DNA of 64,000 nt from Planctomycetia bacterium (lineage in GTDB: Bacteria > Planctomycetota > Phycisphaerae > UBA1845 > UTPLA1), in assembly GCA_015200345.1 (NCBI GenBank), contig CP054187.1, positions 728,470 to 792,469 of the forward strand, written 5' to 3'. Every line of letters starts with the position of its first letter. The first letter of the stretch is position 1. Shown piece by piece: positions 11,821-25,855 of this stretch. Made by a program: the position numbers and the translations under genes. The notes beneath the pieces were generated by a model. The model saw nothing but the letters and a program-made list of their open reading frames with translations, had not been told where the DNA came from and made no database searches.

Positions 11821-12621
11821 ATGGGCCGGTCTACCGACAGCCCGCACGGCGTTACGAATTCGATTGCGTCCCATTCCGCAGTCCCTCAACGGCGCGTGTC
11901 GCTCTTCGTCCCGTGCTACGTCGATCAGTTGTTCCCGCGCGTCGCGCAATCGACCGTCCTGCTGCTGGAGCGCCTCGGCGTCGCGTGCGAATACGACGAG
12001 CGGCAGACCTGCTGCGGCCAGCCCGCTTTCAACAGCGGCTACGCCGACGCTGCGCGGCGCGTGGCGGAGCATTTCGTCAGCATTTTTTCCGGCTGTGAGA
12101 CAATCGTCGCGCCGGGCGGATCATGCGTGAGCATGGTTCGCAACCACTTCGCGCACGTTCTGGGGCGCGAAGAGCCGGTCACCCTGCGCGTGCGCGAGCT
12201 GTGCGAGTATCTTGTCAACGAGCTGGGTGCCCCGGATGTCGGCGCGAGCCTGCCTGGACGCGCGGCGCTGCACATGCCCTGCCACATGCTGCGCGATCTG
12301 GACGGCGCCAGCCCCGTGCGCGAAATTTTGTCCCGCGTGCGTGGATTGGAGATCGTCGATCTCCCGTGCGATACCTGGTGCTGCGGCTTCGGCGGAACGT
12401 TCAGCGTGAAGTACCCGGAGCTGTCGACGGCCATGTCCGAAACAAAACTACAACAGATGCGCGACGCCGGCGTGGATTACCTGATCTCCCCGGAATCGAG
12501 CTGCCTGATGCAGTTGGCAGGGGTGTTGCAGCGGTCGCAGGATCCAGCGCATCCGAGAGTTTCCCAGCGGGCCATCCGGCCGCTGCATGTGGCGGAAGTG
12601 CTGGCGGGTACGATCTCATGA
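11821..12621 (+). CDS. lutA: Lactate utilisation protein A (LutA/YkgE), CCG-domain iron-sulfur oxidoreductase subunit
   Basis: Cytoplasmic subunit of the LutABC complex that oxidises L-lactate to pyruvate. The 266-residue protein has the paired cysteine-rich domains of this family: TCCGQPAFNSGY near 60 with APGGSCVSMVR near 95, and MPCHMLRDL near 155 with TWCCGFGGTFSVKYPE near 185. The ATG at 11821 lies four bases after the previous stop and 10 bases after AAAAGGAG (11803-11810), so it is translated together with the glycosyltransferase gene. About 25 N-terminal residues before RRVSLFVPCYVDQLFP are extra compared with typical family members. The ATGA overlap with lutB confirms the operon. Confidence 0.93.
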   Translation: MGRSTDSPHGVTNSIASHSAVPQRRVSLFVPCYVDQLFPRVAQSTVLLLERLGVACEYDERQTCCGQPAFNSGYADAARRVAEHFVSIFSGCETIVAPGGSCVSMVRNHFAHVLGREEPVTLRVRELCEYLVNELGAPDVGASLPGRAALHMPCHMLRDLDGASPVREILSRVRGLEIVDLPCDTWCCGFGGTFSVKYPELSTAMSETKLQQMRDAGVDYLISPESSCLMQLAGVLQRSQDPAHPRVSQRAIRPLHVAEVLAGTIS

Positions 12622-15665: not shown

Positions 15666-16604
<939 letters not shown>

Positions 16605-23683: not shown

Positions 23684-24588
23684 GCGTTGTGCGAAATTTG
23701 CAAACCTGGGGCGAGATGGTGAAGTTCTCGCACTCCGTCTTCGCGCTGCCGTTTGCGCTGGTCGCCACCGTCATGGCAGGCCGAAACCTCCCTGCGGGTC
23801 ACGCCTCGGCGGGCCAGTTCGCGCTGATCATTCTCTGCATGGTCGCGGCGCGAAGCTTCGCCATGACCTTCAATCGCATCGCCGATGCCGACTTCGACGC
23901 GCGCAACCCGCGCACCGCCTCGCGCCCGATCCCCACCGGCCGCATCTCGCGCCGCAGCGCGTGGATATTCCTCATCGCCTTCGCCTTGCTCTTTACCGCC
24001 GGCTGTTACGGCTTCCTGCACTCCTTCGGCAACCGCTGGCCGCTGATTCTCTCCCTCCCCACCCTCGCCGCGCTGGCGGGCTACTCCTACGCCAAGCGAT
24101 TCACGCCGCTGGCACATTTCATCCTCGGAATGGCCATCTCCTTCGCCCCGGTTGCCGCCTGGATCGCCATTCACCCCGCCTCCCTCGGAAGCGGGCCGCC
24201 CTTTCTGCTCATGGCCGCCGTCATGAGCTGGATCACCGGCTTCGACATCATCTACGCTTGTCAGGATATTGACATCGACCGGCGCGAGCAGTTGAACTCC
24301 ATCCCCGCCGCGCTCGGCATCGGCCCCGCCCTGCTCGTCTCGCGAGGCTGTCACGTCATGTGCATCGCCATGCTTGTCGGGTTCGGTCTCGTCTGCCACC
24401 TCGGCTGGATCTACTGGTCCGGCCTGGGCATCACCGCCGTCTTGCTCGCCGCCGAGCAGGCCGTCGTCCGCCCCAATGACCTCTCCCGAGTCAACCTCGC
24501 ATTCTTCACACTCAACGGCTGCGTCAGCCTGCTCTTCGCCGCTGCGGCGATCACCGACATCCTCCTGACCACCCGTGCGACCGCCTGA
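23680..24588 (+). CDS. UbiA-family polyprenyltransferase (4-hydroxybenzoate/MqnP-like)
   Basis: Intramembrane prenyltransferase of 302 residues with about eight membrane helices. The first Asp-rich site is N65-x3-D69-x3-D73 (NRIADADFDARN) and the second is D196-x3-D200 (QDIDIDRRE); both bind the Mg-diphosphate of the prenyl donor. The N-terminus (MVKFSHSVFALPFALVATVM) is the one seen in 4-hydroxybenzoate-type enzymes of quinone synthesis, including MqnP of the futalosine menaquinone route. Quinone synthesis is therefore the first guess. The ATGA overlap with a glycosyltransferase also allows a lipid-carrier role. It ends the polysaccharide run. No terminator is visible after it. Confidence 0.85.
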   Translation: MSVVRNLQTWGEMVKFSHSVFALPFALVATVMAGRNLPAGHASAGQFALIILCMVAARSFAMTFNRIADADFDARNPRTASRPIPTGRISRRSAWIFLIAFALLFTAGCYGFLHSFGNRWPLILSLPTLAALAGYSYAKRFTPLAHFILGMAISFAPVAAWIAIHPASLGSGPPFLLMAAVMSWITGFDIIYACQDIDIDRREQLNSIPAALGIGPALLVSRGCHVMCIAMLVGFGLVCHLGWIYWSGLGITAVLLAAEQAVVRPNDLSRVNLAFFTLNGCVSLLFAAAAITDILLTTRATA

Positions 24589-24685
24589 AGCCCGCCATTA
24601 ATCCGCCCCGCACGGGTGCCCCGTTCTTAGCGCATCGATGGGTAGGGTCGCGATGATGGGCCGGCAATTCCAGTTCTAGTTGTAG

Positions 24686-24702
24686 GGTGGGCACTGCCCA
24701 CC
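24686..24702. repeat. Perfect palindromic element GGTGGGCACTGCCCACC
   Basis: Arms GGTGGGCA (24686-24693) and TGCCCACC (24695-24702) around a single C, preceded by TGTAGG. It lies in the 450-base gap between the UbiA gene and the broken PEP-CTERM gene, 62 bases before the heptamer array. It looks like a dispersed intergenic repeat rather than a terminator, since no T-run follows. Copy number cannot be seen from one window. Confidence 0.45.
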
Positions 24703-24763
24703 GTTCAAGTTTATGGTGCGTCGAGTCGCAAATCCGCCGCGGCGGGGACGCCGGCCGCTACGG

Positions 24764-24882
24764 CTGACCACCGGCGACTGACCACTGCCTTCTGGCTCTC
24801 GGCTCATGGCACACGGCTCACAACTTCTGCCTGGCTAAAGGCTAACGGCTACTAGCTAATGGCTGATGGCAAATAGCTAAAA
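24764..24882. repeat. Heptanucleotide tandem repeat array, 17 units
   Basis: The 119 bases divide into 17 successive 7-base units in one unbroken register, with the unit drifting along the array. It starts CTGACCA, CCGGCGA, CTGACCA, CTGCCTT, then CTGGCTC, TCGGCTC, ATGGCAC, ACGGCTC. After two divergent units it ends GCTAAAG, GCTAACG, GCTACTA, GCTAATG, GCTGATG, GCAAATA, GCTAAAA. The last seven units are the cleanest (consensus GCTAATG). No ORF uses it. The period resembles the short tandemly repeated heptamers known from cyanobacterial genomes. The rest of the 24589-25040 gap holds only the palindrome at 24686 and the promoter at 24952. Confidence 0.75.
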
Positions 24883-24951
24883 ACCCCAGGAACAGCTAGA
24901 ACTGGTTACAAAACTCCCCCCAAAATCGCTTGACGCGCCACGCATATTCTT

Positions 24952-24981
24952 TTGACACGCCCTCGGCACCTGTGTTACACT
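24952..24981 (+). promoter_or_regulatory. Sigma70-like promoter for the broken PEP-CTERM gene
   Basis: A perfect -35 TTGACA (24952-24957) is followed, 18 bases on, by TACACT (24976-24981) as a -10. The ATG of the PEP-CTERM gene lies 59 bases downstream, with GAGG at 25027-25030 as its ribosome site. Spacing is within the normal 16-19 range. This is the best-looking promoter I found in the window. Confidence 0.5.
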
Positions 24982-25040
24982 GCCGTCATCGCGGATCTGA
25001 CCTTCCCCCTGCCTTTAGTCCACCTTGAGGAAACAAGGTC

Positions 25041-25855
25041 ATGTGTATACGTGAGTCATTGTGGCCGGGCGCTTGCCGTCGTAATTGTTTATCAGTTGTT
25101 TTCGCACAGTTTCTATTGATGATCGGTTCTACATCATTTGCGATTGCGCAAATGAATGCATGGCACACGGCCGCGCCGCTCACATCAAATGCTTATGTCG
25201 ATTCCAACGCTTCTCCCCCCATGGTATATTCGGGCCACTAAACTTGAGGTGCAATGGTGCCGCGGGCTCTTGTTCTTGGCTCATAACGACTCGCTTGAGA
25301 ATAGTCAACGGAACAGCAATTCGCTATGACTTATGGCTGCGGGATGCAGAGGGCTCTGCAACCAGCTTAACTATCAGTCAAACATCAATCGCCGGATCGC
25401 CATTCTCGATCCCTCTTATCCTCACCGAGAACAACTCGGGGGGCTTCCTCTTGAGGATTCACGCAGAATCGTCGGCACAGGTTCCCGCAAACGAGAACGT
25501 TGGGCACTTCATGCACAGTTTCGTTTTGACCCAAACTATCGCGCAGACGAGCGGGACACAAAACATCATCGCCGCGTCTTATTATGGCTTCGAAGGAACC
25601 GGGCCGCTCACAGACCCCGGCTATGGCACACGATTCGCGTCGGTTGACAACAACCAACTGATTAGACATGTCTTCCTGTATCAAGAGTGGAACAATCCCG
25701 TCATTCGAATCACGAACACCCCCGAACCCACCACGGCCGCGATGCTCCTCGCCCTGGCGCTGCTGCTGCGACGGCGGCGCGTGAACCAACCCGCGAATCA
25801 CGCCGTAAATCCGCCCTGCCACGGCAGTTGCCAGAAGGCGCCGTCCGGCATATAG
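25041..25855 (+). pseudogene. PEP-CTERM sorting-domain protein, frameshifted
   Basis: Two overlapping reading frames together make one secreted protein. Frame A (25041-25241) has a ribosome site, an ATG and a signal peptide (SVVFAQFLLMIGSTSFAIAQ), then stops. Frame B carries the rest: TISQTSIAGSPFSIPLILTE, a conserved-looking body, and the tail NTPEPTTAAMLLALALLLRR, a PEP-CTERM sorting signal. The join needs a net loss of one base (or gain of two) near 25215-25241, close to a run of six C at 25215-25220. Past the Arg cluster the frame runs 24 residues further than normal, so the 3' end may also be decayed. GC is visibly lower than in the neighbours. It is either a pseudogene or an assembly error. 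Confidence 0.65.

What the first reader, a model, noticed from the sequence alone, without database searches (positions are those of the whole stretch)
24764..24882. Seventeen-unit drifting heptanucleotide array
A 7-base period is kept without a register slip for 119 bases while the unit changes gradually from CTGACCA through (C)GGCTC to GCTAATG. This suggests expansion by slippage, followed by drift or successive re-seeding. It is non-coding, beside a palindromic element, and upstream of a decayed surface-protein gene. Heptamer arrays of this kind are described in cyanobacteria; I cannot tell whether this type is described in this lineage.
Basis: seen in the sequence. Interest (0 to 1): 0.55.

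Follow-up and report, generated by a model that had tools for sequence, protein, structure and literature searches.

The report
Gene-less heptamer array, S23-element type
The drifting seven-letter repeat is real, and repeats of this kind turn out, across many bacterial phyla, to sit as mirrored arms on both sides of a small gene family (S23/IVP) whose role is unknown; the copy in this window has no such gene beside it.

Summary
The array is real: lag-7 identity over 24764-24882 is 68/112, 0 of 5000 shuffles reach it. It is two abutting arrays: the GRCY core changes phase from 0 to 4 (mod 7) near 24820-24833. Block A aligns with the orthologous spacer of the sister species; block B does not. 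It lies upstream of a promoter shared by PEP-CTERM paralogs; seven of seven close paralogs have such arrays.

The unexpected result: in the sister species heptamer arrays bracket, as inverted arms, genes of family PF05635 (23S rRNA intervening-sequence protein, S23p/IVP). This is general. Of 130 PF05635 loci from many phyla, 90 have arrays on both sides; 88 of these share one period (64 heptamer, 24 octamer). Arms match each other inverted, not directly. Among 61 relatives, GGCT heptamers occur in 25 of 48 genomes with PF05635 and 0 of 13 without. The window array's best match among 119 loci is the sister species' PF05635 arm.

I read the window array as a gene-less array of this class. The link between arrays and PF05635 is shown; descent of this array from such an element, and any mechanism, are inferred.

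The parts
24760..24826 (+). Heptamer block A (CTGACCA to GGCTC type), core phase 0 mod 7
   Evidence: lag-7 identity 37/60; 24770-24828 aligns with the orthologous spacer of same-genus genome G392, 74.6% over 59 nt
24829..24882 (+). Heptamer block B (GGCTAAT type), core phase 4 mod 7
   Evidence: lag-7 identity 31/47; TRF period 7. The whole array's best match among 119 PF05635 loci is L271 of G392
24670..24683 (.). Left member of a 14-nt inverted pair; CCAGTTCTAG, the end of a MITE-like repeat seen at L041 and L035
24892..24905 (.). Right member of the inverted pair; CTAGAACTGG, MITE-like end remnant
24680..24708 (.). Short palindrome GGGTGGGCACTGCCCACC
   Evidence: a similar stretch precedes the array at L043
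24733..24759 (.). GC-rich palindromic stretch, part of a dispersed repeat
   Evidence: 24717-24782 matches L041 at 73%
24952..24981 (+). Sigma70-like promoter TTGACA-18-TACACT shared by the paralogs
   Evidence: 24946-24994 matches L037 at 92% over 49 nt; read by eye
25041..25855 (+). Frame-shifted PEP-CTERM paralog (most divergent of seven)
   Evidence: 41% identity over residues 52-241

Best explanation
The window array is a pair of gene-less heptamer arrays of the same kind as the inverted heptamer or octamer arms that bracket S23p/IVP (PF05635) genes in many bacteria. The most likely way it works: the PF05635 gene with its two arms is a small selfish element related to the 23S rRNA intervening sequences; the arms fold into a stem when transcribed, and the ring-shaped S23p protein acts on the repeated 7/8-nt units; arms grow and shrink in whole units. 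Solo arrays such as this one are left when the gene is lost, or are gene-less copies, and then drift and travel with neighbouring genes when those are duplicated. Shown: the arrays, their association with PF05635, the inverted orientation and equal period of the arms, presence/absence of the gene between two congeners, similarity of this array to the sister species' arm. Inferred: that this array descends from such an element, binding by S23p, mobility.
For: PF05635 flanks: period-7 arrays on 48 and period-8 on 22 of 100 sides, against 5 and 1 of 95 distal windows (50 of 58 hits). In 80 loci from many phyla: 90 and 38 of 159 sides against 4 and 4 of 140 distal windows; other intergenic gaps 17 and 6 of 107; UbiA flanks 0 of 34. 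Inverted match of own arms mean 19.2 and 19.7 against 7.8 and 7.5 for mismatched pairs; direct 7.0 and 9.9. Same period on both sides in 88 of 90. GGCT heptamers: 25 of 48 PF05635-positive relatives, 0 of 13 negative, Fisher 4e-4; phylum sample 55 of 199 against 21 of 193, 3.5e-5. A 400-kb sample of a PF05635-free genome has no period-7 or -8 array, against 3/0, 10/5 and 5/5 in three positive genomes. At atpA-atpG the own genome keeps a solo array whose four units equal the right arm of the PF05635 element in G392. The window array scores 25 with that element's arm, next locus 19. RNA fold of that element pairs the arms, z -2.7.
Against: The window has no PF05635 gene or inverted partner array (repeat finder 24580-25060; the only own PF05635 gene is at 3365155 and has octamer arms). 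21 of 193 phylum genomes without a PF05635 hit have GGCT heptamers. Seven of 50 and nine of 80 PF05635 loci have no array at the threshold on either side. The atpG start itself reads GGCTAAG, so that array could be seeded by the host gene. CTGACCA-type arrays of the genus match no same-genus arm well; their best matches are loci of other genera.
Confidence: 0.5

Rival explanations
1. Ordinary heptanucleotide satellite: polymerase slippage in 7-nt steps plus point mutation in unconstrained intergenic DNA, unrelated to PF05635.
For: Whole-unit length differences; heptamers are over-represented in many bacteria (PMC4692102 passages); 42 of 193 genomes without PF05635 have one of the two heptamer patterns.
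Against: Does not explain inverted, equal-period arms around one gene family, nor absence in 13 of 13 PF05635-free relatives.
Confidence: 0.32
2. A regulatory array: repeated sites upstream of the -35 box tune a surface-protein operon family.
For: Arrays lie directly upstream of the conserved promoter in seven of seven close paralogs and in five G392 loci (four of five reach the score threshold).
Against: The same kinds of array lie at unrelated sites, such as atpA-atpG and other spacers; unit sequence and number are not conserved; here a 70-nt stretch with a MITE end separates array and -35 box.
Confidence: 0.13
3. Remnant of MITE/IS activity: the array is a filler between two MITE ends.
For: CCAGTTCTAG pair at 24670-24683 and 24892-24905; MITE or IS5-family insertions beside arrays at L035 and L041.
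Against: Paralogs L033, L034, L043 have the array without that end; the MITE interior carries no heptamers.
Confidence: 0.05

Closest known systems
23S rRNA intervening sequence with S23p ORF (Coxiella, Leptospira)
   Same: PF05635-type ORF inside inverted repeats; in Coxiella tandem heptameric repeats GACAGAT precede the ORF and vary in number between strains, and the terminal repeats form a 28-bp stem (PMC4990558, passages)
   Different: Here the genes lie outside rRNA genes, the arms are arrays whose unit differs from locus to locus, and gene-less arrays are dispersed; the window array has no gene
Cyanobacterial heptanucleotide STRRs and TAACTGA repeats of Beggiatoaceae, cyanobacteria and Bacteroidetes
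   Same: Intergenic tandem heptamers at many loci (PMC4679880 abstract; PMC4692102 passages); CCACTGA here differs from TAACTGA at two positions
   Different: Those are described as single fixed units and without a linked gene; here the unit drifts and the arrays form inverted arms of PF05635 genes
REP/BIME elements with RAYT transposases
   Same: Dispersed short repeats tied to one gene family that is itself flanked by inverted copies (recalled)
   Different: No transposase motif in PF05635; units are 7/8 nt in tandem and locus-specific
Diversity-generating retroelements (Avd)
   Same: Avd is a homologue of PF05635 in fold and sequence (PMC10053308 passages)
   Different: No reverse transcriptase or template/variable repeat was looked for here

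Membership tests
Heptanucleotide tandem repeat (STRR-like) | 7-nt period above chance | tested here: met
   68/112, 0 of 5000 shuffles
Heptanucleotide tandem repeat (STRR-like) | Same unit at many intergenic loci of the genome | tested here: met
   45 GGCTNNN x4 matches at up to 2 mismatches, 13 for reversed pattern
Heptanucleotide tandem repeat (STRR-like) | Copy number varies between strains | tested here: inconclusive
   Varies between paralogs and between two species; no strains compared
S23p/IVP element | PF05635 gene present at the locus | tested here: not met
   Only own hit is at 3365155, outside the window
S23p/IVP element | Inverted partner array | tested here: not met
   The repeat finder 24580-25060 finds only the MITE pair and a short palindrome
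S23p/IVP element | Arm sequence like that of a PF05635 element of the lineage | tested here: met
   Best of 119 loci is the same-genus L271, 25 against 19
S23p/IVP element | Excision of the transcript by RNase III | not testable with these tools
   -
MITE | Own terminal inverted repeats and target duplication around the array | tested here: inconclusive
   14-nt inverted pair at 208 nt distance, but the ends face outward compared with L041/L035
REP/RAYT | RAYT (Y1) transposase gene | not tested
   -
CRISPR | Repeats separated by unique spacers of constant length | tested here: not met
   Units abut head to tail

The most novel reading that the evidence does not exclude
PF05635 (S23p/IVP) genes with inverted heptamer or octamer arms are a widespread, unrecognised class of selfish element in bacteria, of which 23S rRNA intervening sequences are one special landing site; the ring-shaped Avd-like protein drives the copying of 7/8-nt units, perhaps with a reverse transcriptase supplied in trans, and this activity is the source of the drifting heptamer arrays scattered through planctomycete, cyanobacterial and other genomes.
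Probability: 0.22. Interest if true: 0.92.

Novelty: new variant of a known kind. Interest (0 to 1): 0.72.

Why it matters
The origin of heptamer arrays and the role of S23p/IVP proteins are both described as open in the passages read. A shared anatomy (inverted 7/8-nt arrays around the gene, in most loci tested over many phyla) ties the two questions together and makes both testable: purify the protein, offer it its own arm units, and follow array gain and loss with the gene.

Tried and rejected
Rfam: one sub-threshold match (IRES_IGF2, E 0.81), dismissed. First array detector (segment scores) was too strict: one hit in 400 kb and the window array only 16.8; replaced by a two-lag window score. 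The idea that unit divergence arose at birth was tested on one G392 array without counterpart in the own genome: adjacent-unit identity 50/79 against 0.75 expected for perfect copies drifting since the split (4-fold sites 42 of 170 differ); a second array gave 27/33; loss in the own genome cannot be excluded, so I drop it. Strict recognition of a unit by the protein: arm similarity follows protein identity mainly above 50% identity (Mantel r 0.14 below 60%, 0 of 1000 permutations), so no universal target; a weak circular consensus GAGTNNN exceeds a column-permuted null (1.61 against at most 1.33 bits). That the atpA-atpG genes of G392 and G410 are one old insertion: rejected, 25% identity. Period 8 as a pure control failed in part: 7 of 61 relatives have octamer arrays of GGCT, and octamers proved to be arms as well. 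In one search one of the 22 arrays (own_atp) is the orthologue of the arm it matched; without it 11 of 21 have a same-genus arm in the top five (null mean 3.5 of 22). Lineage: no call names it; Planctomycetota is my recollection from gene content.

Full report
What is there. The stretch 24764-24882 keeps a period of 7: 68 of 112 positions equal the base seven further on, against 27.9 +/- 4.9 in 5000 dinucleotide shuffles, none of which reaches 68; no other 119-nt stretch of the window exceeds 49. The core GACC/GGCT sits at phase 0 (mod 7) up to 24815 and at phase 4 from 24833 on, so it is two arrays: A, about 24760-24826, and B, about 24829-24882. A short MITE-like end, CCAGTTCTAG, stands inverted on either side (24670-24683 and 24892-24905). 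At two other loci of the genome, L035 and L041, the same end closes a MITE-like repeat next to an array, at L035 with an IS5-family element inserted in it.

Where it sits. Downstream lies a sigma70-like promoter (24952-24981) and a frame-shifted PEP-CTERM gene. The genome holds seven related PEP-CTERM genes and one distant one. All seven loci have a heptamer array upstream at the score used (0.57-0.70); the eighth locus was not examined. The same-genus genome G392 has at least five array-plus-promoter loci, four of which reach the score; the orthologue of the window locus (L171, next to ubiA at 92% protein identity) has a shorter array that does not. The order CTGACCA type, then GGCTAAT type, then promoter is shared by paralogs of both species, with differing unit numbers (by eye). 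The sequence change along the array is therefore inherited, not a local walk. Block A (24770-24828) aligns with the G392 spacer at 74.6% over 59 nt; block B does not align.

How common such arrays are. Exact GGCTNNN x4 occurs in 76 of 392 genomes of the phylum and 25 of 61 relatives; the period-8 version in 7 of 61. In 400-kb samples, period-7 and period-8 arrays number 3/0 (own), 10/5 (G392; one of the five is a CA repeat), 5/5 (G405) and 0/0 (G396); periods 4, 5, 10, 11, 13 give 0 or 1 each.

The link with PF05635. Comparing orthologous spacers of the two species, I found in G392 three genes of the 23S rRNA intervening-sequence protein family (PF05635; S23p, IVP) that the own genome lacks at the same places: atpA-atpG, after atpG, and a spacer at 2913 kb. 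Heptamer arrays flank them, inverted with respect to each other (for the 2913-kb gene the right array lies within the 3' part of the reading frame). At atpA-atpG the own genome has only one array, whose four GGCTAA units equal the right arm in G392. G392 may have gained the gene or the own genome lost it; PF05635 genes in that spacer in G392 and in G410 are 25% identical and so independent arrivals.

Tests of the link. PF05635 has 58 matches in 18 of 21 relatives; I examined 50 (one below the family's cut-off). Within 300 bp, 48 of 100 sides have a period-7 and 22 a period-8 array (score 0.56 or more), while periods 5, 10, 11 give 0, 0, 1; distal windows of the same loci give 5 and 1 of 95; 43 of 50 loci have an array on at least one side. 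Distal windows are mostly coding, so I also took 107 other intergenic gaps of these loci: 17 and 6 have arrays, against 2, 1, 0 at periods 5, 10, 11. Arrays are thus 3-4 times commoner beside the gene than in other gaps, and above chance in those too. Flanks of ubiA in 17 relatives: 0 of 34. The left array matches the reverse complement of its own right array (mean score 19.2 and 19.7) far better than that of other loci (7.8 and 7.5) or than itself in direct orientation (7.0 and 9.9); 34 of 50 and 62 of 80 exceed the 95th percentile of mismatched pairs. Of 90 loci with arrays on both sides, 88 have the same period on both (64 sevens, 24 eights). The left arm is G-rich on the coding strand: G exceeds C in 85 of 103.

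Genome level. Among 61 relatives GGCT heptamers occur in 25 of 48 with PF05635 and 0 of 13 without (Fisher 4e-4); with the reversed pattern added, 31 of 48 and 1 of 13. In the phylum sample 55 of 199 and 21 of 193 (3.5e-5); either pattern 99 of 199 and 42 of 193. Some of these arrays are arms themselves, and completeness and relatedness were not corrected for.

Back to the window. Scored against the arms of 119 PF05635 loci, the window array matches best L271, the atpA-atpG element of the sister species (25; next 19). Of 22 gene-less arrays of the two species, 12 have a same-genus arm among the five best (null mean 3.5, maximum 9 of 2000 draws); one of the 22 is the orthologue of the arm. CTGACCA-type arrays match L266 of another genus best. 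There is no PF05635 gene or inverted partner here.

Mechanism. Known from reading: the Coxiella intervening sequence has an S23p ORF, terminal inverted repeats forming a 28-bp stem, excision by RNase III, and tandem heptamers before the ORF whose number varies between strains (PMC4990558, abstract and passages); the Xanthomonas protein is a pentamer of four-helix bundles (same passages); Avd of diversity-generating retroelements is homologous to PF05635 (PMC10053308, passages). Sequence search finds 2gsc and 2rld as solved relatives. The G392 element folds with its arms paired (z -2.7, 1 of 100 shuffles as stable). From this I infer a small selfish element whose arms pair in the transcript and whose ring protein acts on the repeated units; solo arrays are its gene-less leftovers or copies. 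Binding, mobility and copying are not shown.

Literature. No paper in the listings describes inverted heptamer or octamer arrays around PF05635 genes outside rRNA; the library holds open-licence papers only. Of PMC4679880 I saw abstract and outline; of PMC2700814, PMC4692102, PMC6749651 and PMC4060949 passages.

Noticed in passing
L035:3283, L037, L171:1386, L201, L202, L203, L204 (start of the operon's first gene): A CT-dinucleotide tract of 8 to 25 units follows the start codon of the pectate-lyase-like gene; the frame is open over 485-587 codons at 13, 22 and 25 units and closes after 18-34 codons at 8, 11 and 15 units: a phase-variable switch by its looks.
   Followed up: partly
L305, L303, L311, L313, L302, L271 (atp operon spacers of G392, G398, G399, G410): PF05635 genes sit in ATP synthase operon spacers of several genera and families; those after atpG are 57-70% identical and three of four share GCGAATA-type arms.
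   Followed up: partly
L060:1410-1514, 16067-16176 and 12143-12230: Pairs of inverted heptamer arrays with only 22-55 nt between them and no gene; candidates for elements that lost the gene.
   Followed up: no
G420, G423, G441, G399: Octamer arrays GGCTTCGT, up to 59 matches in one genome; some lie beside PF05635 genes (for example G420:C4 and G423:C10).
   Followed up: no
L171:3945-4110: In G392 the 3' end of ubiA is repeated (94.6% over 166 nt) 3 kb downstream, after the PEP-CTERM operon.
   Followed up: no
L171:1080-1190: A palindromic MITE-like insert with AAGCTATCCC ends interrupts the heptamer array at the orthologous locus of G392.
   Followed up: no
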